From positions 1 through 59,020 of the forward strand of contig NZ_JHZC01000020.1 of the NCBI RefSeq assembly GCF_000621125.1: a DNA stretch of 59,020 nucleotides. Reading direction: 5' to 3'. Shown here piece by piece: positions 1 to 59,020 of this stretch. The stretch's first letter is position 1. The number at the start of each line of letters is the position of its first letter. Made by a program: the position numbers and the translations under genes. Origin of the DNA: Maribacter antarcticus DSM 21422. GTDB lineage: Bacteria > Bacteroidota > Bacteroidia > Flavobacteriales > Flavobacteriaceae. The notes beneath the pieces are model-generated. The model made no database searches, was not told the DNA's origin, and saw only the letters and a program-made list of their open reading frames with translations.

Positions 1-123
1 AACGGTTAGTATATGAAAAGTAGGCGATTACAAAGCACGAAACTTTCGTTTAAGCACAAAGTTTGATACGAACCAAAACCTTTGATTTTAGTACTAATTC
101 GCCTATTTTTTATATACATTGTT
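1..123 (-). repeat. attC-like site E1 (123 bp class)
   Basis: First of about 40 related elements. It starts with AAC and ends with GTT. The arms GTATATGAAAAGTAGGCGA and TCGCCTATTTTTTATATAC pair after spacers of 5 nt (GGTTA, left) and 3 nt (ATT, right). This asymmetric AAC-spacer-stem...stem-spacer-GTT layout matches integron attC sites (R''-L''...L'-R'). The GTT also starts the 10-base end GTTGTAGGCC of the gene unit to its right. Recombination function is inferred. Confidence 0.75.
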
Positions 124-136
124 GTAGGCCGTGTAT

Positions 137-652
137 TTATTTTGTGTTAGTTGAATCCTCGGCAACAGGAGTAATAGTTGCAAATTCATTAGAGTATGTT
201 ACTTTCCACGAATCATCAATCTTTTTAAAAACTAATGTTGCTGCAAATGGATCTATTTTGAACTGCTGCTTGTCTTTAAATGTTGCATGTCCTGTTCCAA
301 TATAAGTCATAATGACATTCTTTTTGTCAATATATGTAAATAGAATGTTGGTTTCATTGTACTTTTGATGGGCCACTGCACCAAAATATTCTTTATTTGA
401 TTTTATATAACCAGTATAATCAGCAACTACTCCATTGCTAATGGCAATAAATTCAGGACTGTTTAAGTAAGGTTCGGTTGCCTTTTCAAAATTTCCAGCT
501 TCACTATTCTCAATAATTTGATTAATTACTACTTCAACCTCCGTTTTAATAGTTGCTTTATCTTGGTCACTTAACACTTCTATTTTTTTTGTATCACACG
601 ATGCAAGTAATAAAGTTGCTAGAGTCAGGATTGTCAGAGTTAATTTTTTCAT
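137..652 (-). CDS. NTF2-like (SnoaL/DUF4440-type) lipoprotein
   Basis: A 171-residue protein with a type II signal peptide and lipobox LLASC, lipidated Cys at residue 19, so it is probably anchored to the periplasmic face of a membrane. Residues 35-160 have the alternating helix/strand pattern of the NTF2-like superfamily (IINQII..., TYIGTGHATFKD, LVFKKIDDSWKVTY). That fold binds small ligands or acts as a small enzyme, and no catalytic residue can be assigned here. It is the only gene in its unit, whose ends GTTGTAGGCC and GGCCTACAAC are perfect inverted repeats. The start is the ATG followed by the usual KK of a signal peptide. Confidence 0.75.
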   Translation of the reverse strand: MKKLTLTILTLATLLLASCDTKKIEVLSDQDKATIKTEVEVVINQIIENSEAGNFEKATEPYLNSPEFIAISNGVVADYTGYIKSNKEYFGAVAHQKYNETNILFTYIDKKNVIMTYIGTGHATFKDKQQFKIDPFAATLVFKKIDDSWKVTYSNEFATITPVAEDSTNTK

Positions 653-698
653 TATTGTGAATTTTTATGGTTAATATAAATGGTTTTAAATGGCCTAC

Positions 699-785
699 AA
701 CGGTGGGTATAAGGTTAGTACGCCTATCAAAAAAGTTTTAAATAAAAGTACTGACCATCATAGCGTATTAACTTTATATAATGTT
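699..785 (-). repeat. attC-like site E2 (87 bp)
   Basis: AAC at 699 and GTT at 783. The arms TATAAGGTTAGTACGC and GCGTATTAACTTTATA pair, allowing G-T pairs. It is a shorter version of the 123 bp class that lacks the central hairpin. Confidence 0.65.
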
Positions 786-969
786 GTACGCTTTTAAAAT
801 TGCGATTATGATACACTTAATTAATTTTTTATTTAAAGTAATAGCAACAATTATTTCTGTACCAGTAAGTGTTTGCTTAATAGTAATAGCAATAATGTTA
901 TGGGATAAAAAATATATAGATATAGCCTCTGTTGTACAGAACGAATATATATGGAACGCAAAAAACTAA
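781..969 (+). CDS. small membrane protein in a reversed cassette
   Basis: A 62-residue ORF, or 53 residues if the internal ATG at 808 is used. It has one long hydrophobic stretch (FLFKVIATIISVPVSVCLIV) followed by MLWDKKYIDIA and a polar tail, so it is probably an inner-membrane protein. It is the only sizeable ORF of its unit (ends GTTGTACGCT/TGCTTACAAC, 8 of 10 complementary) and lies opposite to almost every other gene. The first ATG overlaps the terminal GTT of E2, so the 808 start is preferred biologically. Function unknown. Confidence 0.55.
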   Translation: MLYAFKIAIMIHLINFLFKVIATIISVPVSVCLIVIAIMLWDKKYIDIASVVQNEYIWNAKN

Positions 970-987
970 GTAATTTTTATTGCTTAC

Positions 988-1072
988 AACGTACAGATAT
1001 ACGTATGAATACGGTTATTTCCATTTTATTAGTAGGACTAATCTAGTGGATTTCGTATTATTCTGCATTGTA
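988..1072 (-). repeat. degenerate attC-like site E3 (85 bp)
   Basis: AAC at 988. The right core is GTA (1070) instead of GTT. The arms are CAGATATACG on the left and CGTATTATTCTG on the right. The next unit's ends do not match well, so this site or its neighbour has decayed. Confidence 0.45.
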
Positions 1073-1107
1073 TCAACATGGAAGATCTAAAGGGCTTATT
1101 TCACCAA

Positions 1108-1272
1108 CTATTGTTTTTTCAGCGCATTATAAATAAGTGCATTTTGTAATCCTGCTGCAACTAATAATACACCAAATAGATATGTGTAATTTTCTGTATC
1201 ACTGTAGAGATATGAAGCGAAAAGAATTACAACAGCCCATATTATAGCACTTATAATCAGTATATTTTTCAT
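1108..1272 (-). CDS. 54-residue small membrane protein
   Basis: A complete small ORF, ATG at 1272 to TAG at 1108: MKNILIISAIIWAVVILFAS..., then YLFGVLLVAAGLQNALIYNALKKQ. It has two hydrophobic segments joined by a short polar loop (YLYSDTENYT), a typical two-helix membrane hairpin. It fills the space between E3 and E4, where a cassette gene is expected, and has the orientation of the other cassette genes. No function can be assigned. Confidence 0.6.
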   Translation of the reverse strand: MKNILIISAIIWAVVILFASYLYSDTENYTYLFGVLLVAAGLQNALIYNALKKQ

Positions 1273-1324
1273 TTTTGAATTTATTTGATTGAGATTACTT
1301 ATAGTTTAGTATTCAATTACCTAC

Positions 1325-1448
1325 AACATGTTTGTGTAAGTTTAGTTATAACTTTAAATAATGAAGTTAATAAATAGATCACAAATAGAAAGTCCGTTTG
1401 GACTTTCGTAAGTAGGCTAGAAGCAAGCATTTAAATTTACACGGTGTT
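1325..1448 (-). repeat. attC-like site E4 (124 bp class)
   Basis: AAC at 1325 and GTT at 1446, with outer stem GTGTAA.../...TTACAC. The central hairpin GAAAGTCC-GTTT-GGACTTTC (1388-1407) is the same hairpin as in sibling sites, but A-T is replaced by G-C with compensation on both sides. Confidence 0.75.
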
Positions 1449-1460
1449 CTATGGCGTTTT

Positions 1461-2015
1461 TTATTTCAAAGGATAAAATTCCTCTGAAGTTTTATAGGTT
1501 ATTTTTCCATCTTTTTTACTCAAAAGAAATGTTCCACCCCAAATTATTTCGGGATAGTATAATAATTGTTTTGTCATATCTCTTATAACAAGCGGTGCTT
1601 TCGTGTCTAGTAGCGACATCATTTCAATTGCTTTACTTATTGAAAACCATTGAGCATCTTTTTTGTTTTCGGGTACTTTCAGTTCTCCATCGACGATATT
1701 ACAACTAAAATGTTGTCTAAATTGTGAAATCGGCTTGTAGTCAGACATAAACATAAATATTCCAGCAATTTTAGGGCTATTTATTTTCACTCCATATTCA
1801 GACGCTAAATTCATAAGTCCATCTTTTATAGTTGTTTGAGAATTGTGTCTTAATGCAGGCGTCATCCATCCGAAATCATTTTTTTCCAATAAAACTTCTC
1901 CTTTTTGATTGTAGATTAATAATCTTTGAATTGTATAACTATCATTTCCTGTTTCTTGAGCAAATGATTTTAGTCCAAAAAGGATGATAAATGACAGCAA
2001 AATTAATTTTTTCAT
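1461..2015 (-). CDS. secreted Nudix-like protein, catalytic box lost
   Basis: A 184-residue protein with a Sec signal peptide (residues 1-19, cleavage near SFA-Q). The body looks like a Nudix fold: QRLLIYNQKGEVLLEKND at the start, a central GLMNLASEYGV where the Nudix box (GX5EX7REUXEEXGU) would lie, then WFSISKAIEMM. The glutamates of the REUXEE core are missing, so hydrolase activity is unlikely. It may be a ligand-binding relative. Single-gene unit, ends GTTCTATGGC and GACTTAGAAC (8 of 10). Confidence 0.55.
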   Translation of the reverse strand: MKKLILLSFIILFGLKSFAQETGNDSYTIQRLLIYNQKGEVLLEKNDFGWMTPALRHNSQTTIKDGLMNLASEYGVKINSPKIAGIFMFMSDYKPISQFRQHFSCNIVDGELKVPENKKDAQWFSISKAIEMMSLLDTKAPLVIRDMTKQLLYYPEIIWGGTFLLSKKDGKITYKTSEEFYPLK

Positions 2016-2058
2016 AAATATTATTTATTTTAATCACGGTTTTTCTTAAATGACTTAG

Positions 2059-2245
2059 AACGTTCAAGCTATAAGTAGTGCGGGAGCAGAGAAGCAATTC
2101 CCATTCTGTCATAGCCCTTAGCAAAATCTTTTTGTTTTAATTTATTTTTTTGTCTAAAGTAAAATCCTAAAGATTTTGCGACTTCATAAAAATGCACAAA
2201 CCTTTCGATTTAGCACCTTAGCCCACATTGCCTATAGGTTCTGTT
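2059..2245 (-). repeat. attC-like site E5 (187 bp class)
   Basis: AAC at 2059 and GTT at 2243. The outer stem joins CTATAAGTAGTGCGGG with CCCACATTGCCTATAG. Long-class sites carry an inner hairpin near their middle; here AATCCTAAAGATTTTGCG. Confidence 0.75.
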
Positions 2246-2271
2246 GGCAACAGTATTTTTACGTTCGTACT

Positions 2272-2559
2272 TTAAAGTATATTTTTTAAATCCTGTTTTC
2301 CAACAATCGCGATTATATCAACGGTATCACTATTTATTTTGTAGTAAATGCTGTCCGAACCACAAACACATCGGCGGTATCCTTCTTTTATATGCTCGAC
2401 CGATTCAAATGAAAACGGTCTTTTAGCTATTATGTCAAAATATTCAAAAAATGTTTCGAAATATTTGTCCGCTTGTTGCATTCCAAATTTTTTGGCTCCG
2501 TACCGATGAATACGAATAAGGTCGTCTTTAGCGTCGTTGCTTATTCTATACTTAATCAT
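2272..2559 (-). CDS. parE: RelE/ParE-family toxin
   Basis: A 95-residue protein with the ParE fold. It opens with the YRISNDAKDDLIRIHRYGAK strand-helix, has RPFSFESVEHIKEGYRRCVCGSDSIYY in the centre and ends VDIIAIVGKQDL. ParE toxins poison DNA gyrase, while RelE relatives cleave mRNA on the ribosome; sequence alone leans to ParE. Its ATG lies 8 bp inside the upstream antitoxin gene, so the two are translationally coupled. The pair fills one unit with perfect ends (GTTGGCAACA/TGTTGCCAAC). Toxin-antitoxin cassettes are characteristic of large chromosomal integrons, where they are thought to stabilise the array. Confidence 0.85.
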   Translation of the reverse strand: MIKYRISNDAKDDLIRIHRYGAKKFGMQQADKYFETFFEYFDIIAKRPFSFESVEHIKEGYRRCVCGSDSIYYKINSDTVDIIAIVGKQDLKNIL

Positions 2560-2791
2560 TTAGTATAGACTTGGATTGCGCTAAGATTTGCTCCTTGCTA
2601 TCCTTGCTAAATCCGCTATCTTCAGCTTTCTCCAATTTAGTTTTAATCCAGTCAATTTCGATTTGTTGGCTTCTTGCTTGACGAATTAAGTCATTAACGA
2701 GTTCGCTTTTACTCGAGTATTCTTGATTGTCTACTTGTGTTTTTAACCATTCATCATTTGGTACCGTAAACGATATGCTTTGTCTAGCCAT
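2552..2791 (-). CDS. parD: ParD-like antitoxin
   Basis: A 79-residue protein. Residues 1-40 (ARQSISFTVPNDEWLKTQV, then SSKSELVNDLIRQA) form a ribbon-helix-helix DNA-binding domain. The charged C-terminal helix (EIDWIKTKLEKAEDSG...) is the expected toxin-binding tail. It is the first gene of the pair, overlaps the toxin by 8 bp, and should repress its own promoter as a dimer, which is family knowledge rather than something seen here. The upstream region to the unit border at 2862 is only about 70 bp and must hold the promoter. Confidence 0.85.
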   Translation of the reverse strand: MARQSISFTVPNDEWLKTQVDNQEYSSKSELVNDLIRQARSQQIEIDWIKTKLEKAEDSGFSKDSKEQILAQSKSILND

Positions 2792-2859
2792 AATAAATAT
2801 ATTTTGATGCTAAATTACACCAAATACGAACCAATTCCAAATTTTGCGATATTGTTGCC

Positions 2860-2985
2860 AACGGTGTTGTGCAGGATTAGTTGCTGTGTTTAAGCACTAA
2901 GGTTAATAAATATTTCACAGATAGAAAGTCAGCGAGGACCTTTCTAAATAGGCCAGAACCAAAGTAATTAATTTTGTACGGTGTT
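2860..2985 (-). repeat. attC-like site E6 (126 bp class)
   Basis: AAC at 2860 and GTT at 2983. The outer arms are TGTGCAGGATTAGTTGCT and AGTAATTAATTTTGTAC. The central hairpin GAAAGTC-AGCGAG-GACCTTTC is slightly imperfect. Confidence 0.75.
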
Positions 2986-2989
2986 GGCA

Positions 2990-4714
2990 TTAGTTCTTTA
3001 AATAATTTTCTTTCAATTTTCTTATCATTAATTTAGAAGTACTACTGCTAGGATGTAACTTTATAGCTGCTTGGTAATTTTTTAGGGCACTATTAAAATC
3101 TTCTTTATGAAAATATGCTTCTCCTAAACTATCAAAAGAATTTGCAGATTTTGGAAAAAGTTCTGTATTTAATTTAAATATTTCTATAGCAAGGTCTAAA
3201 TTTCTTTTTTGAATTAATGAGTAGCCTAAATTATTTAAATTAGACTCATTAGCATCATAATTTTCATTTTTAAGTTTATTTAAACTTAAGGGAATTAAAT
3301 TTTCTTTGGTTATACTTTGTAGTTCATTTTCTAAAAAGAAACTTAAAGGTTTTTTAGGTTTGTTTTTAGATTTTTCAAAAAAGATAGATGTTCCTCTTAA
3401 TACACCTAGCCCTTTATTTGTGAATATTAGGGTTTCATTAGTTCTTTCAGAAAAATAAGTATTCGTTTTTATATAACTTAAAGGAGTGTAGTTTCCATCA
3501 TTTTTAATAAATAATTGACTTTTTTCAACTATGATAATTTTATCATTAGATAAATTAGAAGTATAAATACCTTCAAATTTTTTGATGTTTACATTATTAC
3601 TTATATTCAAATATTCTGAGTTTAAAATAATTGAAGCCATTTTCATAGGTGCTTGATAAGATAAATTTCTATCGTATTTACAGTATCCACAATTACGAAG
3701 ATGAGCAATGAATAAATCTTCTTTTGGAAAATAAATAACTACAGCACCATATCCCCAAGTAAGTCCATTATGAATAATATACGGATTTCCGTTTAAGTTT
3801 CCTAAAAACCAACCCAGTCCATTTCTACCAATGATTCCATCGTTAAATTTAATTGGTATTAAAGCTTTATTTATAGAAGACTTGTTGAGTATTTCATAAT
3901 TAATTATTGCCTTGTACCAAGTATATAAGTCATCTACAGAAGACATTAATCCACCAAATGAATAATGTGAAATATCATCTTTTTCTTGTTGTTTTATTTC
4001 ATAAGGAGCATTATTAAAAGAATCATAACCCGTAGCTCTATTTTTTATTACTTTTTTAAAACTTTCTAATTGAGTGTCTTTCATTTTTAAAGGAGTAAAG
4101 AAAGTACTATTTAAATACTCATCGTATTTTTGCTTGGTTACTTTTTCAATTATATAACCTAATAATCCGTAGGCTTCATTGCTATAATCATATTTTTCTC
4201 CAGGTTTGAATTTAAGTTCTTTGTTAGCAAAATGATTAGAAATAGAGTGACTATCGCCTTCTTTTATTTCTTTTTCAAGCTCTCCTCGATCGTGTAAACT
4301 GAAATAAGGCAGTCCAGAGGTATGAGACACTAAGTGTTTTATTAATATTGTATTTCCATTTGGAAAATCTTCAATAAACTTTGATAAAGGGTCTTCTAAT
4401 GATATTTTACCCTCTTCAACCAATTTTAGAATAGCCATAGCTGTAAAAGGTTTGGTAACAGAAGCTATTCCCATTACATTTTCTGATTTCATTGGGATAT
4501 CTAATTCAAGATTAGCTTTTCCAAAGGCTTTCTTATAAAGGATTTTTCCTTTTTGAGCAATTAAAAAAGTGCCTCCAGGTTCATCTTTAGGAAAAAAAGA
4601 TAATAAGTTATCTATTTCTGATTCTTTAAACGTTGAAGAGCTTGAAGATTTTTCTTGAGAACAGCCTAGTTGTGTAAAAAAGACTAAAAGTAATAACGTA
4701 TTAAAAATTTTCAT
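2990..4714 (-). CDS. beta-lactamase-family serine hydrolase lipoprotein with TPR tail
   Basis: A 574-residue protein with a lipobox ending at Cys18 (TQLGCSQ). Residues 45-370 are a class C beta-lactamase/D-peptidase-like (Pfam Beta-lactamase, MEROPS S12) domain: nucleophile motif S85-V-T-K88, Tyr motif YSN near 175, and a third motif around HNGLTWGYG. Residues 500-570 carry TPR helices (AIEIFKLNTELFPKSANSFDSLGEAYF, ALKNYQAAIKLHPSS), a common Bacteroidota fusion. Members act as esterases or peptidases, and the substrate is unknown. It is co-oriented with the AraC-type regulator upstream, 83 bp apart, in the same unit, so the regulator probably controls it. Confidence 0.8.
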   Translation of the reverse strand: MKIFNTLLLLVFFTQLGCSQEKSSSSSTFKESEIDNLLSFFPKDEPGGTFLIAQKGKILYKKAFGKANLELDIPMKSENVMGIASVTKPFTAMAILKLVEEGKISLEDPLSKFIEDFPNGNTILIKHLVSHTSGLPYFSLHDRGELEKEIKEGDSHSISNHFANKELKFKPGEKYDYSNEAYGLLGYIIEKVTKQKYDEYLNSTFFTPLKMKDTQLESFKKVIKNRATGYDSFNNAPYEIKQQEKDDISHYSFGGLMSSVDDLYTWYKAIINYEILNKSSINKALIPIKFNDGIIGRNGLGWFLGNLNGNPYIIHNGLTWGYGAVVIYFPKEDLFIAHLRNCGYCKYDRNLSYQAPMKMASIILNSEYLNISNNVNIKKFEGIYTSNLSNDKIIIVEKSQLFIKNDGNYTPLSYIKTNTYFSERTNETLIFTNKGLGVLRGTSIFFEKSKNKPKKPLSFFLENELQSITKENLIPLSLNKLKNENYDANESNLNNLGYSLIQKRNLDLAIEIFKLNTELFPKSANSFDSLGEAYFHKEDFNSALKNYQAAIKLHPSSSTSKLMIRKLKENYLKN

Positions 4715-4797
4715 AATTGTAAATAATGATTTAATTAGACCACAAAAAACAGGTATAAAAGTGAATTATACGTTCGAATAATTTATTCGAACTCTTT

Positions 4798-5925
4798 TTA
4801 TGAATTTTTTTTTCTAAAAATAGTAGGTGTTACTCCTGTGTTTTTTTTGAAGATGGTATTGAACGAAGATTTTGAATTGAATCCTACTTTATATAGAATC
4901 TCTAATATGGTAAGATTTGAAGAACCTTTATCTTTTAATATTTCTTTAGCTTTACTTATTCGATGATCACTAGTAAACTCGTAGAAGTTCTTACCAAATT
5001 GAGTGTTTATTAAAATTGACAACTCTCTTTCATTCATTCCTAGTTGACTGGCTAAGTCTTTAATGGTAAATTCAGGATTCAAAAAGGGCTCTTTTTGAAT
5101 CATAAATTCCTCAATTTTTACTTTTTGAGTATTTAAAAGTTCTATTTCTTTAATAGATTTTTCATTTATTAAAACAGATGCTAATTTCAGTTTTGAAGAG
5201 ATTCCTTTAAATAATTCTGGAGCATACAGTGCTTTTAGAACTAGCCAACACGAAAAGCCTAGCATTATCAAGGAACTTATTAGCCTTAAAGAAGTGATAT
5301 ACCCAAAATGATTACCAAATCTATATATGTTTTTTACTAAGGCAGAAATAAACAATACTAAACAAATAATATTCATTTGAAATAACCATTTGTAGTTTTT
5401 ACTGTGTTTTTTTGAAAAGTTTTCGAGCACAATTTTTTTATACTTTACAAGTAAAATAAAGGTAATTATTATATAAAAAATACTTTGTAAATGAGCTAAA
5501 GTGTACGAAAATTTACCCTGAAAAGTATGTGTATAATTATTGTAAAATGATAACTGCTCACTTGTATTAGCTAAATAGAAATCTGGAAGTAAAGCTAAAG
5601 TGCTTACAATAAATGGACTAAAACAAATAAGATGGTTTGAGGTAAGTTTAAAATCTGAATAAACTATTGAAAGTGTAAATAAAAATAATAAAGGAGATTG
5701 AAAAAAACTACCAATATCCATTCTTAGAATATCAACAAGTGGGCTTAAACTGATAGAACTAAAAGTTGAAGGGATAATATCGATTGCTCTAACAATTAAA
5801 AAAAGCGAGACTAAAATATTACCTATTTTATTTTCTGATTTTACCGTAATTAAGAAAAACGCGAAGAAAAGCGATGTGAAAATCAATAGAATATTTGAGT
5901 AGTGAAGTAATACGTCGCTATTCAT
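4798..5925 (-). CDS. AraC-family regulator with membrane-embedded N-terminus
   Basis: A 375-residue protein. The first 230 residues hold about seven hydrophobic helices (for example ILLIFTSLFFAFFLITV, LISSLIMLGFSCWLVLKALY). The last 100 form an AraC double helix-turn-helix: FTIKDLASQLGMNERELSILI, then ILEILYKVGFNSKSSFNTIFKK and GVTPTIFRKK. A membrane-anchored one-component regulator of this type probably senses an envelope signal. It is the first gene of its unit and lies directly upstream of the serine hydrolase. Unit ends GTTGGCATTA and TACTGCTAAC agree at 8 of 10 positions. Confidence 0.8.
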   Translation of the reverse strand: MNSDVLLHYSNILLIFTSLFFAFFLITVKSENKIGNILVSLFLIVRAIDIIPSTFSSISLSPLVDILRMDIGSFFQSPLLFLFTLSIVYSDFKLTSNHLICFSPFIVSTLALLPDFYLANTSEQLSFYNNYTHTFQGKFSYTLAHLQSIFYIIITFILLVKYKKIVLENFSKKHSKNYKWLFQMNIICLVLFISALVKNIYRFGNHFGYITSLRLISSLIMLGFSCWLVLKALYAPELFKGISSKLKLASVLINEKSIKEIELLNTQKVKIEEFMIQKEPFLNPEFTIKDLASQLGMNERELSILINTQFGKNFYEFTSDHRISKAKEILKDKGSSNLTILEILYKVGFNSKSSFNTIFKKNTGVTPTIFRKKNS

Positions 5926-5990
5926 TAATAAGTTTTTTCATAAATTTTTGAGAATCATATTCCAATGTTCTAGGTTTTTTAATTACTGCT

Positions 5991-6179
5991 AACGGCTAAG
6001 GTATGGGTAGTGCGGGAGCAGAGCAGTACGCATCTTCCGTACTTTACACTTAGCTAAAGCATTTTTTTTGTGTTTATTTTTTTGTTTTAAATGCCAAATC
6101 AAACTGTTTTGGCGTACCTCCTAAAAATACGCAAACCTTTTGATATTGACCAAGCCCCGCATTACGTATAGGTCTTGTT
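5991..6179 (-). repeat. attC-like site E7 (189 bp class, in copy A)
   Basis: AAC at 5991 and GTT at 6177. The left arm GTATGGGTAGTGCGGG pairs loosely with CCCCGCATTACGTATAG. The inner hairpin is CCAAATCAAACTGTTTTGG. Confidence 0.75.
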
Positions 6180-6575
6180 AGCGGTTTTATGTAACCCGAA
6201 CCAAACGCTAAAAGACAAGCTATTCCTATATTACCCTTAGATTTTGCCGCTTTTAACATGCAGCGTTACACCTAAGCAGACATGAAAAATTAAGAGGTAT
6301 AGAACGTTTAAAAATACCGGCAAGCCACAAGTCCGTCTGGATATTGATTACGCAACACTTGCGTTGTGGCGGCAAAAGGGAAGACCCCGAAAGTTGCGCT
6401 ATTTTTAAAGCCTAGGCCACACTTAAAAGAGAAACCAATGAAACTGGTACCGTAGATTTTATGTTGCTCTGATAAACGTTCTGTTTGCGAAATGAGTAGG
6501 TCTTTTATAGGGTAAGCAGCAAAAAAGGGAAAGCCCCGAAGATTATCTTACTTCTTACCACATATTACCGCTAAC
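5991..6575 (-). mobile_element. ORF-poor repeat cassette, copy A
   Basis: One of four near-identical units (others at 24713, 36287 and 54188). Homology starts at AACGGCTAAGG and stops at ACCGCTAAC, while the flanks differ completely. The duplicated unit is therefore one attC-like site (left, about 189 bp) plus the body to its right (about 399 bp). A 61-codon minus-strand ORF (6074-6259) spans site and body, but copy D interrupts it, so it is probably not a gene. The body holds hairpin ACGCAA-CAC-TTGCGT (6350-6364) and two copies of AAAAGGGAANNCCCCGAA (6374, 6523). These features suggest a structured RNA or DNA element. Confidence 0.8.
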
Positions 6576-6698
6576 GGTCTTGTGTATGGTTAGTTGCGTT
6601 GGCTAGCAAATAAATTAGTAGAAGAAAACGAACCAGAGAAAATTCCGAAGGAATTTTTCAAGTAGGTGAAAACCTAACAATTAAATATACACGTTGTT
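6573..6698 (-). repeat. attC-like site E8 (126 bp class)
   Basis: AAC at 6573 and GTT at 6696. The stem is GTGTATGGTTAGTTG...CAATTAAATATACAC. The central hairpin AAAATTCC-GAA-GGAATTTT has a sequence different from its siblings but is still fully paired. It supplies the stop codon of the gene at 6681. Confidence 0.75.
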
Positions 6699-7310
6699 AG
6701 CAACTGGGTTTTCTTTCGGTTGCCTATATAGTCTAATTGCTGTATAAGTAATCCATAAGAAATAAAATAAGAATGTAATTCTTTGTCCAAGAGCAGGCAT
6801 ATTTGGAAATATAAACACCCAAGCTCCGAATACAATCGTTAAATAAGTAAAAATTAAAGTCGGTGTTTTTGCGTTTTTCCAGTATTCCGTTTTACTCATC
6901 ACTTTGGGATAGGTAAAAGCACCAATTAAAAAGAAAATGTAACTGCCGAAACTACCAAGTGTGTGCAAAAGCATTGTGGTTGATTGTCGGTTGTTAAAAT
7001 CGCCTGGAAATATTCCCGATATAGCCATAAATACACCACTCAATAAAATACCATAAAGAGGTAATTTGCTTGATTTTGTGACAGCAATATTTTTATAAAG
7101 TCCAATCGCATAAATAGCAATTAAAATTCCAGTAAGAATATAGCCGAAAGAATTCCACAACCATTTATTCGACGCATCGAGCGAACCAAGCTCACTAATA
7201 GCTTTTGTAAACATTGAATATTCTGGACGAATTGATGACATAATTAAATAGGTAGTCAAAAACACTATAGGTGTTACAATTCCGATTACTCCATAAGATT
7301 TGTATGTCAT
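6681..7310 (-). CDS. DUF998 family integral membrane protein
   Basis: A 209-residue protein with about six transmembrane helices. The N-terminal block GVIGIVTPIVFLTTYLIMSS, then ISELGS and NSFGYILTGILIAIYAIGLY, is characteristic of DUF998. Function is unknown for the family, although DUF998 proteins often sit beside regulators. The C-terminal residues NNVYI and the TAA stop are encoded by the attC-like site (AACAACGTGTATATTTAA). It lies downstream of a broken Crp-type gene in the same unit, which probably once regulated it. Confidence 0.8.
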   Translation of the reverse strand: MTYKSYGVIGIVTPIVFLTTYLIMSSIRPEYSMFTKAISELGSLDASNKWLWNSFGYILTGILIAIYAIGLYKNIAVTKSSKLPLYGILLSGVFMAISGIFPGDFNNRQSTTMLLHTLGSFGSYIFFLIGAFTYPKVMSKTEYWKNAKTPTLIFTYLTIVFGAWVFIFPNMPALGQRITFLFYFLWITYTAIRLYRQPKENPVANNVYI

Positions 7311-7365
7311 TTTGATTTTTGTGTTGAAAGGTATTGATAATAACAGTTCCTAAATTTGATTTAAA

Positions 7366-8007: not shown

Positions 8008-8015
8008 AATGTTAA

Positions 8016-9101: not shown

Positions 9102-9111
9102 AATTATAGTT

Positions 9112-9255
9112 AACGTTTTAGTTATGAACAGTTCGGGAGCAACTAGCGATTGCTTTCCGACGAGCATTTAGCGAAATCTTTTTATTTTGCTCTGCTGCTC
9201 GACATGCCTTAGCCATTTGTAAAGACCCAAACCCGTATTGTTTATAGGATTTGTT
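9112..9255 (-). repeat. attC-like site E10 (144 bp, shortened long class)
   Basis: AAC at 9112 and GTT at 9253. The arms TTATGAACAGTTCGGG and CCCGTATTGTTTATAG pair. It resembles the 187 bp class with about 40 bp missing from the centre. (E9 is the missing site near 8008.). Confidence 0.65.
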
Positions 9256-9331
9256 GGCAAATCGTTTTTCTAAGCTGTACCTTTCAAGTCTATTTATTGA
9301 GTGTTCACTACGCTTTATTAAAAGCAATTTT

Positions 9332-9700: not shown

Positions 9701-9761
9701 CAGAATACGTTTTGTACTTAATATAGCATTAATTTTAATAGGTTGCGTTATAATGTTTGCC

Positions 9762-9885
9762 AACGTGTTTATATATGATTTTTTACGTTGATTAAATAAC
9801 TAATTTAGTAAATACAAACTGAATAGAAAATCCGCGAGGATTTTCGTAAGTAGCGTAGAACTAGCAATTAATTATACATGGTGTT
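9762..9885 (-). repeat. attC-like site E11 (124 bp class)
   Basis: AAC at 9762 and GTT at 9883, with right arm AATTATACAT-GGT-GTT. The central hairpin is GAAAATCC-GCGA-GGATTTTC. The interior is almost identical to E14. Confidence 0.8.
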
Positions 9886-24712: not shown

Positions 24713-24900
24713 AACGCCAAAGCTATACGTAGTGCGGGAGCAGAGCAGTACTCATCTTTCTTATTTTACACTTAGCTGAAGCAGTTTTTTTGTATTTATT
24801 TTTTATTTTAAAAGCCAAATCAAACTGTTTTGGCGGACCTCCTAAAAATACGCAAACCTTTTGATATTGACCAAGTCCCGCATTACGGATAGGTCTTGTT
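24713..24900 (-). repeat. attC-like site E20 (188 bp class, in copy B)
   Basis: AAC at 24713 and GTT at 24898, very similar to E7, E28 and E37. The inner hairpin is CCAAATCAAACTGTTTTGG. Confidence 0.75.
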
Positions 24901-25896: not shown

Positions 25897-26017
25897 AACG
25901 TTTGGTATATGGTTTGTTGCGTGTTTAAGCAACTAATTTAGTAAACAAATCACAGATAGAAAATCCGCGAAGATTTTCTTAAGTAGGCGAGGACTAGCAA
26001 TAAATTATATACTGTGT
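25897..26017 (-). repeat. attC-like site E22 (121 bp class)
   Basis: AAC at 25897 and GTT at 26015. The arms are GTATATGGTTTGTTGC and GCAATAAATTATATAC. The central hairpin is GAAAATCC-GCGA-AGATTTTC. Confidence 0.8.
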
Positions 26018-26027
26018 TGGCATGTCG

Positions 26028-36473: not shown

Positions 36474-36873
36474 AGCGGTTTTATATAATCCGAACCAAAC
36501 GCTAAAAGACAAACCATTACTATATTACCCTTAGATTTTGCCGTTTTTAACATGCAGCGATACACCTAAGCAGACATAAAAAAAATTAAGAGGTATAGCA
36601 GGTTTATAAATACGGGCAAGCCACAAGTCCGTCCGCATATCGATTGCGCAACCGTTGCGTTGTGGCGGCAAAAAGGGAATACCCCGAAAGCTGCTCTATT
36701 TTTAGAGCCTAGGCCACACTTAAAAGGATAAACCAATGAAACTGGTACCGTATATTTTTTGTTGCTCTGATAAACGTTCTACTTGCGAAATGAGTAAGTC
36801 TTTTATAAGGTAAGCAGCCAAAAAGGGAAAGCCCCGAAAATTATCTTATTTCTTACCACATATTACCGCTTAC
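36287..36873 (-). mobile_element. ORF-poor repeat cassette, copy C
   Basis: Third copy, with borders AATGCCAAAG (core AAC changed to AAT) and ACCGCTTAC (core TAC). Body hairpin GCGCAAC-CG-TTGCGT differs from copies A and B but remains paired. The motif AAAAGGGAANNCCCCGAA occurs twice. The corresponding ORF (36350-36565) is 71 codons. Both changed cores suggest the copy can no longer recombine. Confidence 0.8.
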
Positions 36874-36994
36874 GGTTGGGCTAAGGTTCGTTGCTGTGAT
36901 TCATCCGAAGGACAATCCAGCCGAACCTAAAGATAGCTTTTTGCACGTAATTTCCGTTTAGGAAATCCGCAAGCAATGAATTTTAGCCATTGAT
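36871..36994 (-). repeat. degenerate attC-like site E29 (124 bp class)
   Basis: Left core TAC (36871) and right core GAT (36992). The central hairpin is ATTTCC-GTTTA-GGAAAT, with the strand order reversed relative to siblings. Both cores are mutated, so the site is probably fixed in place. Confidence 0.6.
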
Positions 36995-38528: not shown

Positions 38529-38715
38529 AACGGTTAGGCTATGGTTAGTACGGGAATTAAAAGTGCTGAACTTTCGAACTAGCAGTTAGCAAAATCTTTT
38601 TATTTTGTTTTATCTTTTTTATTCTAAAGCCAAATTAAAAAATTTGGCGGACTTTGTAAATAAACACTAAACTTTGGGTTAAACACCAAACCCCGTATTA
38701 ATTATAGCCATTGTT
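38529..38715 (-). repeat. attC-like site E30 (187 bp class)
   Basis: AAC at 38529 and GTT at 38713. The arms GGCTATGGTTAGTACGGG and CCCGTATTAATTATAGCC pair almost fully. The inner hairpin is CCAAATTAAAAAATTTGG. It encodes the tail and stop of the gene at 38698. Confidence 0.85.
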
Positions 38716-53607: not shown

Positions 53608-54171
53608 CTAGGTTAACTTCTTAAGTCGACTTAAAGATTCTGGTTTAATTCCTAAATAAGAAGCAATTTGATATTGAGGAATTAGTTGTTCTATATTAGG
53701 GTAATTTTTCAGTAAAAACTCATATCGTTCTCGAGCAGTATCCATTAAAAGAGTCGTTTCTCTTTTACATTTTCGAATGAATAAAGTCTCAGATATTAAT
53801 TTACTTAATTTATAAAATTCAGAATCTGTATTTAAAAGTTTTTGATAGTTTGAACTTGATAAATAATATACTGTTGAATTAGATAACGCTTGTATATAAC
53901 CTTTAGTGGGAGTTTGTGTAATAAAGCTAGTATATGAGCTCATATATGTTTTAGGCATGTAGAAGTCAATGTTAAATTCGGTACCATTCTTTATTATGTA
54001 AGAACGAAATATTCCATTATTTACTAACGCAATAAATGAACATACTTTTCCTGGTTGTATTAATAAATCATTTTTTTGATAATCGGTTTTTTCGACATGA
54101 TTTTCCAATAAGTCTAAATTTTCCTTTTTTAGATTGATTGAATTCGTGATTTGATTTCTAAATTCGTTCAT
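53608..54171 (-). CDS. Crp/Fnr-family regulator
   Basis: Start chosen at 54171 (MNEFRNQITNSINLKKEN); a TTG start at 54189 would lie within the cassette end. The protein is 187 residues. The cNMP-binding-like core (YQKNDLLIQPGKVCSFIALVNNGIFRSYI) is followed by the HTH YQIASYLGIKPESLSRLKKLT. First gene of the unit, probably controlling the cupin and DUF3291 genes. Confidence 0.8.
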   Translation of the reverse strand: MNEFRNQITNSINLKKENLDLLENHVEKTDYQKNDLLIQPGKVCSFIALVNNGIFRSYIIKNGTEFNIDFYMPKTYMSSYTSFITQTPTKGYIQALSNSTVYYLSSSNYQKLLNTDSEFYKLSKLISETLFIRKCKRETTLLMDTARERYEFLLKNYPNIEQLIPQYQIASYLGIKPESLSRLKKLT

Positions 54172-54187
54172 TTTTTTTATTACTGCC

Positions 54188-54374
54188 AACGGCTAAGCTA
54201 TAGGTAATGCGGGAGCAGCGCAGTACTCATTTTCCTTATTTTACACTTAGCTAAAGCAGTTTTTTTGTGTTTATTTTTGTTCTAAATCCCAAATCAAACT
54301 GTTTTGGCGTACCTCCTAAAAATACACAAACCTTTTGATATTGACCAAGCCCCGCATTACGTATAGGTCTTGTT
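54188..54374 (-). repeat. attC-like site E37 (187 bp class, in copy D)
   Basis: AAC at 54188 and GTT at 54372, as E7. The inner hairpin is CCAAATCAAACTGTTTTGG. Confidence 0.75.
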
Positions 54375-54772
54375 AGCGGTTTTATGTAACCCGAACCAAA
54401 CGCTAAAAGACAAGCTATTCCTATATTACCTGTAGATTTTGCCGCTTATAACATGCTGCGATTCACCTAAGCAGACATCAAAAAAATTAATAGGTATAGA
54501 AGGTTTAAGAATACCAGCAAGCCACAAGTCCGTCCGCATATCGATTGCGCAACACTTGCGTTTTGGCGGCAAAAGGGAAAACCCCAAAAGCTGTTCTATT
54601 TTTAAAGGCTAGGGCACACTTAAAAGAGAAACAAATGAAATTGGTACCGTAGATTTGTTGTTGCACTGATAAACGTTCTGTTTGCGAAATGAGTAGGTCT
54701 CTTATAGGGTAAGCAGCAAAAAAGGGAAAGCCCCGATGATTATCTTACTTCTTACCACATATTACTGCTAAC
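54188..54772 (-). mobile_element. ORF-poor repeat cassette, copy D
   Basis: Fourth copy, with borders AACGGCTAAGC and ACTGCTAAC. The minus-strand ORF seen in the other copies is interrupted here: the shared start region reads ATG TTA TAA. This is the best argument that the repeated unit is not protein-coding. The body hairpin GCGCAA-CAC-TTGCGT and both GGGAA...CCCC motifs are kept, one with CCCCAAAAG. Confidence 0.8.
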
Positions 54773-54896
54773 GGTTTGTGTATGGTTAGTTGCGATTGTC
54801 TAGCAACTAATTTAGTAAAAGGAAACCGAACGTTTGGGAAATCCGTAGGATTTTCCGAGTACATACAGACCTAAGCAATTAATTATACACTTTGTT
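54770..54896 (-). repeat. attC-like site E38 (127 bp class)
   Basis: AAC at 54770 and GTT at 54894. The stem is GTGTATGGTTAGTTGC / GCAATTAATTATACAC. The central hairpin GGAAATCC-GTA-GGATTTTCC is a variant with most pairs kept. It encodes the NKVYN tail of the next gene. Confidence 0.8.
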
Positions 54897-57013: not shown

Positions 57014-57198
57014 AACGATTAGTGTATGAGTAGTAAGGGAATAAATACACAATAATTTTCAGTTTAGCACTTAGACAAATTTGCAATTTTACTGTCACCC
57101 TTTTTCATTTAACCGTCAAATTGCAAATTTGGGGAACTTTGTAAATAAGTACTAACTTTCAGTTTAGCACATAACCCTTATTACTTATACACGCTGTT
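57014..57198 (-). repeat. attC-like site E40 (185 bp class)
   Basis: AAC at 57014 and GTT at 57196. The arms GTGTATGAGTAGTAAGGG and CCCTTATTACTTATACAC pair nearly perfectly. The inner hairpin AAATTGCAAATTTGGGG lies near the centre. Confidence 0.85.
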
Positions 57199-57215
57199 AG
57201 CCACTGGCTTTTCCT

Positions 57216-57668
57216 TTATATTCTTATTGTACTAATATAAGTCCAAATAATAAATAATATTTGTAAAGGTATCCTAAACCATAAATACATCATACCGTTA
57301 CCATCAAGTGTTCCTTTTTGGAGATTTACGTTGTTCATAGCAGCATATATATTAGCAGGTAACATTAATAGAAGAAAAATTATAAGTGTCCATCCAGATA
57401 CCATTTTAAGTTTAGGAATTAGTAAACCTATTGCTAATAGAATTTCAAAAACTCCAGTTAAGTAAACAAAAATTTCTTTAAAAGGAATAAACTTAGGAAT
57501 CATCATTGACATTCCTTTTGTAAATGCAAAATGACCAATAGCAGTAAACACAAGCATTATGGACATTGCAATTCTTGCTGAAAATGCAAATTCATATTCT
57601 TTTTTGATAATTTTAATAACTAAAAGAGAGATTGTAAAACTTAATAAAAGTACAATTAGTGGTTTCAT
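57216..57668 (-). CDS. DoxX-like membrane protein
   Basis: Start chosen at 57668 (MKPLIVLLLSFTISLLVIKI); the longer frame to 57731 has no support. About 150 residues, four transmembrane helices: ARIAMSIMLVFTAIGHFAFT, IFVYLTGVFEILLAIGLLIP, SGWTLIIFLLLMLPANIYAAM, WFRIPLQILFIIWTYIST. The GHF motif in helix 2 and the overall spacing suit the DoxX-like family. Downstream of a Crp-type regulator in the same unit (ends GTTAGCCACT/TGTGGCTAAC, 9 of 10). Confidence 0.8.
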   Translation of the reverse strand: MKPLIVLLLSFTISLLVIKIIKKEYEFAFSARIAMSIMLVFTAIGHFAFTKGMSMMIPKFIPFKEIFVYLTGVFEILLAIGLLIPKLKMVSGWTLIIFLLLMLPANIYAAMNNVNLQKGTLDGNGMMYLWFRIPLQILFIIWTYISTIRI

Positions 57669-57732
57669 ATTTTTTTCTAAATTATTTGAATACAAAGGTT
57701 GTAAAAGAAGAAATAAAAATAATGAACCCAAG

Positions 57733-58299
57733 TTAATTAATCCGTTTTCTTATTCTACTCAATGCTTGTGGTGTAACACCAATATATGAGGCGATATATT
57801 TTAATGGAATTTGTTGTAATAATTTAGGACGGTCAATGAATAAGCTCAAGTATCGTTCTTCTGCTGTTTTATTTAATAAGGAAATCTCTCTCTTTGATTT
57901 TATTAAAAATATATTTTCAGCCATTTTTCGACCAATAATATTTCCATTACTTGTTTTTTGATAAACTTCTTCTAAGTCTTTTTTTGAAATCCGCCATAAA
58001 ACACTTTCTGTTAAGGTTTCAATTTGGTATTCAGAAGGCATTTGTGATAAAAAAGAATCATAGCCTGTAACAAACTCATTTTCAAATAGAAAGCCAAAAG
58101 TTAAGTCAGATTCTACTCTTGGAATATAAAGCCTGATTATTCCTTTTGAAATAAAGTATAAATAATTTTCAGTTTTACCGACTTTTAATAGAGGAGTATT
58201 TCTGTCAAGTTTTATTTCTTGTAATTTTGAAGAGAAAAACTCCCAATCAGAATTGTTCATTGGAGAAATATTGTCAATAAATTTTCTAATTTCATCCAT
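57733..58299 (-). CDS. Crp/Fnr-family regulator
   Basis: A 188-residue protein. The beta roll (KLDRNTPLLKVGKTENYLYFISKGIIRLYI) is followed by the HTH KYIASYIGVTPQALSRIRKRI. First gene of its unit, with the DoxX-like gene downstream. The pairing of a Crp-type regulator with DoxX repeats the arrangement at 40666-42357. Confidence 0.8.
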   Translation of the reverse strand: MDEIRKFIDNISPMNNSDWEFFSSKLQEIKLDRNTPLLKVGKTENYLYFISKGIIRLYIPRVESDLTFGFLFENEFVTGYDSFLSQMPSEYQIETLTESVLWRISKKDLEEVYQKTSNGNIIGRKMAENIFLIKSKREISLLNKTAEERYLSLFIDRPKLLQQIPLKYIASYIGVTPQALSRIRKRIN

Positions 58300-58315
58300 T
58301 TTTTTGCTTGTGGCT

Positions 58316-58442
58316 AACGTATTTGTATAAGATTAGTTGCGTGGTTATAGTCATTAACTTACTAAATAAAACAAGAAACAGAGGAAATTCAGAAGATATT
58401 TCCAAGTAGGCAGGAACCAAGCAATTGATTATACACGTTGTT
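58316..58442 (-). repeat. attC-like site E41 (127 bp class)
   Basis: AAC at 58316 and GTT at 58440. The arms are GTATAAGATTAGTTGC and GCAATTGATTATACAC. The central hairpin is GGAAATTC-AGAAGAT-ATTTCC. Confidence 0.75.
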
Positions 58443-58481
58443 GTGCTTTCGTTATTTTTTAATATATTTTTCTAAAGATTT

Positions 58482-59020
58482 TCATTCTTTTAATTTTTCA
58501 CCCAAAATTTTTAATATTTCTGTAGCGTTGGTATTGTAATCTTTTAGTCTACCTAAATAATATTTTGAGTAAATTAAGTGTTTGTCACTTTTGGTACGAT
58601 ACTCATCACTCTCAAAAATATAGGTAACTAACTCCTTGTTGTAGGTTCTTCGCTCAAAAACAGACCATTCTACAAACCAATCATATTTTTGGAAATCATC
58701 AGTTGTTTCAATTGTAATATCTAACAACATTTTATTCACATCTGGGAATATTGCATCGTAGTCTTTATAAAAAGCATCTATTTTAAAAGAAAGCGAGTCT
58801 ACCTTATTGCTTTGGTCTGTGTTAAGTGATTTCAATAAGTGATAACCCGTTTCTAAATTTTGAAAAGAATCTGCATCAGCAACATCAATTCTACACTTTT
58901 CACAATTGGCATAATTGGATTCATTGATGGTATCATAATACGATATTGGTATGTTGCGGTCAATAATATCAGTCAACCTGTTGTTCTTTTGTAAATAAAG
59001 TTCAATCTTTTGAGAGACAT
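58482..59020 (-). CDS. C-terminal part of a DUF6090-like protein (runs off the window)
   Basis: The frame is open up to the last base of the window (SQKIELYLQKNNRLTDIIDRN...), so the 5' end is missing. The visible 179 or so residues are helical and resemble the periplasmic part of DUF6090 proteins (LETGYHLLKSLNTDQ, DSLSFKIDAFYKDYDAIFPD, YYLGRLKDYNTNATEIL). The transmembrane head lies outside. Its unit has the same left end (GTTGTGCTTTCGTTATTTTTT) as the DUF6090 unit at 56245, pointing to a duplicated cassette family. Confidence 0.6.
   Translation of the reverse strand, partial: VSQKIELYLQKNNRLTDIIDRNIPISYYDTINESNYANCEKCRIDVADADSFQNLETGYHLLKSLNTDQSNKVDSLSFKIDAFYKDYDAIFPDVNKMLLDITIETTDDFQKYDWFVEWSVFERRTYNKELVTYIFESDEYRTKSDKHLIYSKYYLGRLKDYNTNATEILKILGEKLKE

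What the first reader, a model, noticed from the sequence alone, without database searches (positions are those of the whole stretch)
1..59020. The whole window is an integron-like gene-cassette array in a Bacteroidota genome
About 40 inverted-repeat elements alternate with single genes or small operons over 59 kb. Each runs AAC - short spacer - stem - variable centre - stem - shorter spacer - GTT, as integron attC sites do. Cargo is typical of cassettes: ParDE, GNAT, P-loop, NTF2-like, DUF and lipoprotein genes. To my knowledge arrays of this scale are described mainly in Proteobacteria such as Vibrio, so this may be a little-known or divergent integron type. Recombination is inferred; the repeat structure is seen directly.
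Basis: partly seen in the sequence, partly recalled or inferred. Interest (0 to 1): 0.95.

Follow-up and report, generated by a model that had tools for sequence, protein, structure and literature searches.

The report
A second kind of integron
This stretch of a Bacteroidota chromosome is part of a huge row of small gene packets, each ending in a hairpin-like DNA site, that was likely assembled by an enzyme different from the one that drives known integrons; it matters because it would be a second, overlooked system by which bacteria collect and shuffle genes.

Summary
The window carries 35 elements of the stated form in one orientation, with covarying stems. They belong to an array of 195 detected elements on eight contigs, about 313 kb of a 4.85-Mb genome close to Maribacter. 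The intervals behave as integron cassettes: the 6-mers at the two ends of a unit are complementary (93 of 198 perfect; permutation mean 3.8), the flanks of one element are not (4 of 209). A 585-bp cassette recurs in 24 contexts with breakpoints at AAC/GTT. The array ends at an attI-like site and a tyrosine recombinase gene, truncated here. In 36 named loci 71 of 75 element hits lie 3' of the recombinase on the predicted strand; three sister pairs share recombinase and attI but differ after the GTT. The recombinase is not IntI: it lacks the IntI insertion, has an extra N-terminal domain, and no canonical IntI passes its cut-off in 60 relatives. It works like an integron but fails a defining feature: a new variant. 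Recombination is inferred, not shown. A relative sits beside tet(X3) on a plasmid.

The parts
1..59020 (+). Segment (whole contig C17) of a ~313-kb cassette array; elements read on +, cassette genes mostly on -
1..123 (+). attC-like element (short class)
   Evidence: R1 95.8 bits; same element as C4:352567-352689 in a 702-bp 100% contig overlap
699..785 (+). attC-like element (87 bp)
   Evidence: R1 44.2 bits, not in training set
987..1053 (-). second copy of the attI-like stretch at the recombinase 3' end, 97% over 67 bp to L018:2202-2268
1325..1448 (+). attC-like element (short)
   Evidence: R1 98.7 bits
2059..2245 (+). attC-like element (long class)
   Evidence: R2 162.9 bits
2059..2862 (-). 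ParE-type toxin-antitoxin cassette; also in genomes G010 and G022 in other contexts, ending at the same AAC
2860..2985 (+). attC-like element (short)
   Evidence: R1 106.7 bits
5991..6179 (+). attC-like element (long)
   Evidence: R2 176 bits
5991..6575 (-). ORF-less 585-bp cassette, copy 1 of 4 in the window; 24 full-length copies in the array
6573..6698 (+). attC-like element (short)
   Evidence: R1 99.6 bits
9112..9255 (+). attC-like element
   Evidence: R2 64.8 bits, not in training set
9762..9885 (+). attC-like element (short)
   Evidence: R1 116.6 bits
11020..11141 (+). attC-like element (short)
   Evidence: R1 104 bits
11867..12058 (+). attC-like element (long)
   Evidence: R2 140.3 bits
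13201..13324 (+). attC-like element (short)
   Evidence: R1 116.9 bits
15272..15395 (+). attC-like element (short)
   Evidence: R1 112.9 bits
19740..19863 (+). attC-like element (short)
   Evidence: R1 110.5 bits
20802..20987 (+). attC-like element (long)
   Evidence: R2 172.9 bits
21509..21631 (+). attC-like element (short)
   Evidence: R1 93 bits
23098..23149 (+). attC-like element (52 bp, weak)
   Evidence: R2 27.7 bits, not in training set
24713..24900 (+). attC-like element (long)
   Evidence: R2 174.8 bits
24713..25297 (-). ORF-less cassette, copy 2
   Evidence: 92%
25897..26018 (+). attC-like element (short)
   Evidence: R1 123.9 bits
30626..30813 (+). attC-like element (long)
   Evidence: R2 178.4 bits
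32023..32144 (+). attC-like element (short)
   Evidence: R1 112.6 bits
34227..34415 (+). attC-like element (long)
   Evidence: R2 146.1 bits
35402..35521 (+). attC-like element (short)
   Evidence: R1 71.7 bits
36287..36473 (+). attC-like element (long)
   Evidence: R2 167.2 bits
36287..36873 (-). ORF-less cassette, copy 3
   Evidence: 92%
36871..36994 (+). attC-like element
   Evidence: R1 35.9 bits, not in training set
38529..38715 (+). attC-like element (long)
   Evidence: R2 184.5 bits
39296..39418 (+). attC-like element (short)
   Evidence: R1 91.9 bits
46983..47106 (+). attC-like element (short)
   Evidence: R1 84.3 bits
47360..47546 (+). attC-like element (long)
   Evidence: R2 149.8 bits
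52437..52621 (+). attC-like element (long)
   Evidence: R2 157.9 bits
54188..54374 (+). attC-like element (long)
   Evidence: R2 168.1 bits
54188..54772 (-). ORF-less cassette, copy 4
   Evidence: 92%
54770..54896 (+). attC-like element (short)
   Evidence: R1 96 bits
56056..56247 (+). attC-like element (long)
   Evidence: R2 147.4 bits
57014..57198 (+). attC-like element (long)
   Evidence: R2 145.1 bits
58316..58442 (+). attC-like element (short)
   Evidence: R1 98.8 bits
58699..59020 (.). contig-end overlap: 322 bp 100% to one end of contig C22; 98% over 309 bp to the start of C3, the contig with the recombinase

Best explanation
The window is part of a chromosomal array of gene cassettes in which each cassette ends in its own recombination-site-like hairpin element, and the array was likely built by a tyrosine recombinase that is not IntI and that is predicted to cut at a GTT triplet, release cassettes as circles and insert them at an attI-like site beside its own gene. 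SHOWN from sequence: (1) Elements of one orientation separate units of about 1 kb. (2) In gene sense a unit runs GTT - gene - nnnnnn AAC - element core - GTT, and the 6-mers at its two ends are mostly complementary, so that in a circle the site would regain a longer stem. (3) Copies of one cassette in different contexts begin and end at the AAC/GTT triplet, and the element travels with the unit whose 3' end (gene sense) it abuts, as in integrons. (4) In Flavobacteriales and at least Marivirga, elements lie on the 3' side of a recombinase gene, which is 375-392 aa where intact, and in 23 of 30 loci a palindrome and a GTT lie within 51 nt after its stop codon. (5) The stem carries G.T wobbles almost only on the strand opposite to the genes. 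INFERRED: that this strand folds and is the one recombined; that this recombinase does the excision and insertion; that its extra N-terminal domain helps to recognise folded DNA. In this genome the recombinase next to the array has lost its 5' part, so this array may be inactive or served in trans.
For: Unit ends: 93 of 198 consecutive pairs match 6/6 and 132 at least 5/6, against a permutation mean of 3.8 (max 11 in 2000) for 6/6; flanks of the same element match 6/6 in 4 of 209. In 14 loci of other species 42 of 53 units match 6/6. Repeated cassette: in 24 full-length copies pairwise identity is 0.92-1.00 on the AAC at both ends and falls at once outside. A shared toxin-antitoxin cassette in G010 and G022 ends at GCCAAC and then diverges. 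Recombinase: in 36 named loci 71 of 75 element hits lie 3' of it, all 71 on the predicted strand, though the 3' side holds 127,098 of 418,678 bases. attI: palindrome (score 8 or more) plus GTT in 21 of 30 loci, 0.4 expected from shuffles. Sister pairs: identity 0.96-0.98 over 600 nt before the GTT and 0.52-0.54 after it (shuffled 0.51-0.53) in 3 of 3 pairs compared. Strand bias: 343 G.T wobbles on + against 26 on - in 141 elements; + strand folds better in 120 of 147; circle-form site folds better than array form in 120, worse in 21, equal in 6 of 147. Control: R1 finds nothing in 90 kb around 12 canonical IntI and 12 XerD genes.
Against: No recombination has been seen; all is comparative. The array's own recombinase lacks about the first 139 residues of its nearest relative (241 residues left), and the other distant copy has two stop codons. 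4 of 75 element hits lie 5' of the recombinase: three in L085, one in L076. 4 of 21 loci with at least 1 kb on the 3' side show no element. 9 of 30 loci have no dyad of score 8 or more, among them the nearest relative L052; the own attI and the Chryseobacterium plasmid also score 0. In the own genome 66 of 198 units match at less than 5/6; in others 8 of 53; missed elements explain part of this. Outside the repeated cassette single positions are still alike (-8 in all copies, -14, -13, -9 at 0.66-0.70). Several same-genus genomes hold elements without a close recombinase, e.g. G028 with 12.
Confidence: 0.9

Rival explanations
1. It is an ordinary (canonical) integron whose intI lies in an assembly gap or was lost; the neighbouring recombinase is a bystander.
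For: Elements have the general attC plan (AAC...GTT, two spacers, stem). Canonical IntI is common elsewhere in the phylum: over the cut-off in 105 of 395 genomes sampled.
Against: No match over the TIGR02249 cut-off in the own genome (99.99% complete) or in any of 60 relatives, although R1 hits occur in 35 of 37 genus or family rows, own genome included. Of the 107 genomes with a match, one is marked same class and none nearer. The non-IntI recombinase stands beside arrays in many genera on the predicted side and strand. R1 has no hit around 12 canonical intI genes.
Confidence: 0.04
2. The elements are dispersed repeats (MITE or REP-like) or RNA structures such as terminators that sit between genes; cassette exchange does not take place.
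For: Elements are intergenic, abundant and structured; for 19 of 35 window elements the next stop codon lies within 40 nt.
Against: All elements of a contig share one orientation; unit ends pair with each other rather than element ends; breakpoints of repeated cassettes fall at AAC/GTT; no Rfam family reached its threshold in the window.
Confidence: 0.03
3. Cassette exchange is real but is catalysed by the host XerC/XerD or another recombinase, and the linked recombinase only marks the site.
For: The own linked copy is truncated, and elements occur in some genomes without a close homologue.
Against: The recombinase 3' end, the attI-like site and the array keep one layout over many genera; a palindrome plus GTT ends 36-51 nt past the stop in 23 of 30 loci. 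Xer proteins form a separate, well supported group in the tree.
Confidence: 0.07
4. The array of this one genome is an inactive fossil: cassettes were gathered earlier and it is now fixed. (This can be true together with the best explanation.)
For: Truncated recombinase beside it; unit-end match lower here (132 of 198 at 5/6 or more) than in 14 loci of other species (45 of 53), 10 of which have a recombinase frame of 375 aa or more.
Against: A recombinase in trans is possible and was not ruled out; copies of the ORF-less cassette at 87-93% identity in 24 places imply movement over a long time.
Confidence: 0.45

Closest known systems
Chromosomal (sedentary) integrons with IntI, attI and attC
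   Same: One-orientation array of cassettes; element 3' of its gene; AAC/GTT boxes at the ends; breakpoints at the distal GTT; recombinase and attI-like site at one end; strand opposite to the genes folds better.
   Different: Recombinase lacks the IntI insertion and carries about 100 extra N-terminal residues; spacers of 5-6 and 3 nt; polarity marked by G.T wobbles rather than extrahelical bases (the latter recalled); unit-specific 6-mer beyond AAC/GTT; attI-like palindrome at the recombinase 3' end.
IntI4 of Vibrio cholerae (PDB 2a3v; species recalled)
   Same: Core-binding and catalytic parts align over residues 14-178 and 243-317; second entry among the PDB matches of the model (E 5e-16, TM 0.47-0.49 by query length).
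   Different: 22 residues where IntI4 has 64 between these stretches, i.e. no IntI-specific insertion.
XerA/XerC/XerD recombinases (NF040815 XerA-like is the best NCBIfam match)
   Same: SAM-like plus Phage_integrase domains; NF040815 238.8, 216.1 and 210 bits for three proteins, cut-off 220, passed by one; XerA is the first PDB match of the model.
   Different: Separate branch from XerC/XerD in the tree (XerA not included); stands at cassette arrays; has an extra N-terminal domain.
TnpF/XerD beside tet(X3) on Acinetobacter plasmids and pHH1107
   Same: 55% identity over query residues 148-380; a palindrome plus GTT lies between tnpF and tet(X3).
   Different: Annotated recombinase is shorter (221 aa); no array; the far end of tet(X3) shows no matching 6-mer by eye and no R1 hit (R2 was not run there).

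Membership tests
Integron (IntI type) | IntI-family integrase over the TIGR02249 cut-off (265 bits) | tested here: not met
   Full-length homologues 209.2 and 205.1 bits, own copy 186.9 bits; none of 60 relatives over the cut-off
Integron (IntI type) | IntI-specific insertion in the catalytic domain (called essential for integron function in PMC8138268, passage seen, which adds that it is not fully conserved in its integron-like subgroup) | tested here: not met
   22 against 64 residues to IntI4; TIGR02249 positions 180-241 unmatched
Integron (IntI type) | Tandem cassettes of one orientation separated by imperfect inverted repeats with AAC/GTT ends | tested here: met
   195 elements on 8 contigs, one strand per contig; 170 of 210 elements read exactly AAC...GTT
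Integron (IntI type) | Cassette boundary at the GTT of the element 3' of the gene | tested here: met
   Breakpoints of 24 copies; shared cassette in G010 and G022; end complementarity
Integron (IntI type) | attI site adjacent to the integrase gene where first cassettes differ | tested here: met
   Palindrome+GTT in 21 of 30 loci; three sister pairs diverge at the GTT
Integron (IntI type) | attC with extrahelical bases and the usual R/L spacing | tested here: inconclusive
   Arms differ by 2-3 nt in spacer and carry one-sided G.T wobbles; IntegronFinder's attC model could not be run
Integron (IntI type) | Recombination of the folded bottom strand | not testable with these tools
   Only folding energies and wobble bias
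Integron (IntI type) | Cassette promoter Pc | not tested
   No promoter analysis of the attI side was made
XerC/XerD chromosome-resolution recombinases | Falls in the Xer group | tested here: not met
   XerD homologues plus the own XerC and XerD (13 rows) form a 100/99 group apart from array recombinases and IntI
XPB damage-recognition / HARP-like domain (N-terminal 105 residues) | Same fold | tested here: inconclusive

The most novel reading that the evidence does not exclude
Flavobacteriia and relatives run a second class of integron: a recombinase clade outside IntI, without the insertion held to be needed for integron work, equipped instead with an N-terminal branched-DNA-binding-like domain, acts on hairpin sites whose strand is marked by G.T wobbles and whose outer stem is a cassette-specific barcode restored only in the excised circle. 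It has built some of the largest cassette arrays known, and the tet(X3) tigecycline-resistance gene was captured at the attI of a stripped-down member before it reached Acinetobacter plasmids.
Probability: 0.6. Interest if true: 0.93.

Novelty: new variant of a known kind. Interest (0 to 1): 0.88.

Why it matters
Integrons are defined by IntI. IntegronFinder 2.0 reports one complete integron in Bacteroidetes proper, in Salinibacter (PMC9024848, passage seen); reviews list Bacteroidota among integron-bearing phyla (PMC8618304, PMC9668308, passages seen), and one search finds canonical IntI in other classes of the phylum, but not in this lineage. A parallel system with another recombinase would show that cassette capture does not need the IntI insertion, would make the origin of integrons testable, and would explain part of the variable gene content of flavobacteria. 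It might also name the source platform of a clinically important resistance gene. The covariance models and the end-match test give a way to look for more.

Tried and rejected
A loose inverted-repeat scan without the arm offset gave little excess over shuffles and was replaced. Shared cassettes between the own array and the 45 named loci were few and diverged at DNA level, so sister comparison was done at attI and through. The ORF-less repeated cassette was tested as a promoter (Bacteroidetes-type -33/-7 pattern, recalled: none in 24 copies on either strand; a -7-like motif alone in 16 of 24) and as a structured RNA (z -0.33): negative. The N-terminal domain has no Pfam match in four proteins tried; XPB/HARP likeness is weak and its tie to branched DNA is recalled. 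The idea that the window joins C3 directly was given up: C22 overlaps at 100%, C3 at 98%. Literature: ten searches of open-licence PMC papers; in the nine on integrons (all but 105) I saw no listed title or abstract start that describes this system, but the lists were capped (20 of 45, 25 of 64), and subscription papers and preprints are not held. Papers: passages seen of PMC9024848, PMC9668308, PMC8618304, PMC2426708, PMC8138268, PMC8635130, PMC7758954; abstract and outline of PMC6557892. The tree has 12 IntI rows from a narrow set and a long-branch warning; its array group has support 90/70, so sisterhood to IntI is not claimed.

Dropped before counts: hits on the other strand that overlap a stronger hit (window 39304-39418 and 38537-38709, L102:13736-13848), one hit cut by a contig end (L108:1-172), and one start coordinate of L103 was taken from R2; one element (C4:352567 = window 1-123) lies in a contig overlap and is counted twice, so 195 and 210 are 194 and 209 distinct. 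For one search, nine of 45 loci with partial or remote recombinase matches, hits above E 0.01 and one overlapping echo on the other strand. For one search, elements not ending AA...GTT, outside 80-210 bp, next to gaps over 3.5 kb or (wobble count) with stem score under 9. For one search, units over 3 kb. For one search, L081, L084, L085 and three loci with under 60 nt after the stop codon. For one search, loci with one element, elements cut by a locus end and two short hits. For one search, L167 gave no sequence. For one search, L054, L082 and L083 were left out.

Full report
WHAT THE WINDOW IS. The window is the whole of contig C17 of a 4.85-Mb, 99.99% complete genome in 32 contigs. One genome of its genus, G012, is Maribacter sp. 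ACAM166: the recombinase position in the G contig and in NZ_VAUW01000008.1 coincide. ARAGORN finds no tRNA and no Rfam family reaches its threshold in the window.

THE ELEMENTS. AAC...GTT pairs with any two inner stems are about as frequent in shuffled sequence (52 against 34-54; at a stricter score 17 against 3-8). The signature with the left arm 2-3 nt longer than the right is not: 31 in the window against 2-8 in five shuffles. Two size classes (about 124 and 187 bp) were aligned and folded: 16 and 26 consensus pairs, of which 11 and 14 have compensatory changes. Models R1 and R2 give 35 elements in the window; 31 of these trained the models. In the genome R1 alone gives 111 matches at E 0.1 or better (150 of 5,091 candidates were scored), massed on C4:194-353 kb, C17, C21, C22, C24, C25, C26 and the start of C3, with some on C2, C5, C7, C12, C14 and C19. 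On 20 stretches fetched plus window and L018, the union of R1 and R2 is 210 elements on 12 contigs, all of one strand within each contig after echoes of the palindrome on the other strand were set aside.

ONE ARRAY. Contig ends dovetail: C4 right to C17 left (702 bp, 100%), C17 right to C22 (322 bp, 100%), C22 to C26 left (357 bp, 100%), C25 right to C3 left (311 bp, 100%). C21 and C24 were not placed, and 2.3 kb of C24 was not read. The eight contigs hold 195 elements (one of them counted twice in an overlap) with a median gap of 1.0 kb; by adding contig lengths this is about 313 kb, 6.4% of the genome. That they form one array is inferred from the overlaps and the common orientation.

THE UNIT. 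The 6-mer outside the GTT of one element tends to be the reverse complement of the 6-mer outside the AAC of the next element. Of 198 consecutive pairs 93 match 6/6 and 132 at least 5/6; permutation gives a mean of 3.8 and a maximum of 11 perfect pairs in 2000 runs; the two flanks of one element match 6/6 in 4 of 209. By position the match is 0.79-0.88 at -6 to -1 for 147 unit ends and 0.27-0.45 for 169 elements. In 14 loci of other species 42 of 53 units match 6/6 (at least 5/6: 45; permutation mean 2.4, max 8); in Cellulophaga, Flaviramulus, Zobellia, Maribacter huludaoensis and Marivirga all but one match 6/6. This is what circle formation by a crossover at the GTT predicts: the two ends of a unit meet and restore the outer stem. 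Sites rebuilt in circle form fold better than in the array (120 better, 21 worse, 6 equal of 147).

MOVEMENT. A 585-bp ORF-less cassette occurs in 24 full-length copies (of 29 hits) at 87-93% identity to the first. Pairwise identity at its left edge is 0.92-1.00 on AAC and variable (0.38-1.00) in the next bases; before it 0.23-0.49 except at -14, -13 and -9 (0.66-0.70) and -8 (1.00). At the right edge it is 0.70-1.00 up to one base past the closing AAC and then 0.25-0.64. So the element core travels with the unit whose 3' end, in gene sense, it abuts. The ParE cassette (window 2059-2862) recurs in G010 and G022, most of its element included, ending at GCCAAC with other sequence beyond; in G007, G029 and G013 the match is more diverged and the end less clear. 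Of 36 genus genomes, the own one included, 20 share some stretch with window 1-20000 at E 1e-40.

THE RECOMBINASE AND attI. At the C3 end an element, two genes and a 67-bp stretch lead into a tyrosine recombinase gene, followed by genes that look like core genes (named by eye only). The protein (241 aa) has Phage_integrase and part of a SAM-like domain. In 24 of 26 relatives the protein is 375-392 aa from the chosen start codon, with an N-terminal region of about 100 residues without Pfam match. The own gene lacks about the first 139 residues of L052 (protein match from L052 base 10001; BLASTN homology from 10071). In the 60-genome set, own included, 24 genomes have a match of at least 55% identity over nearly the whole query. 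In 36 named loci, 71 of 75 element hits (E 0.01 or better) lie 3' of the recombinase, all 71 on the predicted strand, while the 3' side makes up 30% of the bases (binomial 5e-32; loci are not fully independent). Exceptions: three in L085 and one in L076; 4 of 21 loci with at least 1 kb of 3' sequence show none. After the stop codon lies a palindrome and a GTT at which the first cassette begins: 21 of 30 loci at score 8 or more, 0.4 expected; own and L052 are not among them by this rule. Three sister pairs (own/L052, two Cellulophaga, two Maribacter) are 96-98% identical over 600 nt up to the GTT and no better than shuffled after it. A second copy of the attI stretch lies at window 987-1053.

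STRAND. In 141 elements the 15-bp stem has 343 G.T wobbles on the + strand and 26 on the -, gathered at stem positions 5, 6, 10 and 11 (counted from 0); the + strand folds better in 120 of 147. Genes lie on the - strand (54 of 56 in the window), so the favoured strand is the template strand, as for attC (recalled).

SPREAD. R1 hits (E 1e-9) occur in 35 of 37 rows of the genus and family (own included) and in 3 of 23 rows of other families. Named recombinase loci include Maribacter, Cellulophaga, Zobellia, Arenibacter, Leeuwenhoekiella, Psychroflexus, Bizionia, Winogradskyella, Kordia, Marivirga and Algoriphagus; Arenibacter has almost no 3' sequence and Algoriphagus no element at E 0.01. A Chryseobacterium plasmid carries a relative with three R1 hits 3' of it on the predicted strand, and a Persicobacter plasmid one. 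On pHH1107 a 55% relative (TnpF) lies just upstream of tet(X3), with a palindrome plus GTT between them (1 of 200 shuffles reaches score 8); papers describe xerD-tet(X3)-res as the common setting (PMC8635130, PMC7758954, passages).

CARGO. Of 56 window proteins scanned, 48 have a Pfam match at E 0.001, among them PF00144 serine hydrolases (six), AraC-type and cyclic-nucleotide-binding regulators (four of each, one of the latter below its cut-off), OsmC (two), DoxX types, GNAT, SnoaL, esterases, ParE and one IS110 transposase on the + strand.

VERDICT. A likely working analogue of an integron, tested not to be an IntI integron: a new variant of a known kind, with strong comparative and no experimental evidence.

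Noticed in passing
L171:6052-8073 (pHH1107, FJ012881.1): TnpF, a 55% relative of the array recombinase, lies just upstream of tet(X3) with an attI-like palindrome plus GTT between; tet(X3) may have been a captured cassette, but its far end shows no matching site.
   Followed up: partly
window:5991-6575, 24713-25297, 36287-36873, 54188-54772: An ORF-less 585-bp cassette, 24 full-length copies in the array; no full promoter pattern and no unusual RNA fold found; its use is unknown.
   Followed up: partly
window:987-1053: Second copy of the attI stretch from the recombinase 3' end inside the array, perhaps a trace of a former array head.
   Followed up: no
L018:2253-2978: The recombinase beside this array lacks its 5' part; intact relatives exist in other species.
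   Followed up: yes
G000:C4 206600-276686 and 290562-294226: A ~1.3-1.4-kb unit recurs in several C4 cassettes and on C19 (82-93% identity); a 75% relative lies in Psychroflexus montanilacus L085:15724-17038.
   Followed up: no
L172 (Chryseobacterium plasmid NZ_CP041688.1): Recombinase relative followed by Crp/Fnr, RidA and other genes with three element hits: the system on a plasmid.
   Followed up: partly
window:28603-29412: IS110-type transposase on the + strand, against the direction of the cassette genes.
   Followed up: no
window:41776-42357, 48958-49563, 53608-54189, 57733-58299: Four cyclic-nucleotide-binding-type regulators in one window; two of them share a unit with a DoxX-type gene.
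   Followed up: no
G006:C1: Eight places in one genome with the same score (E 2.8e-38) for a 298-aa tyrosine recombinase frame at 40% to this one, perhaps a transposon.
   Followed up: no
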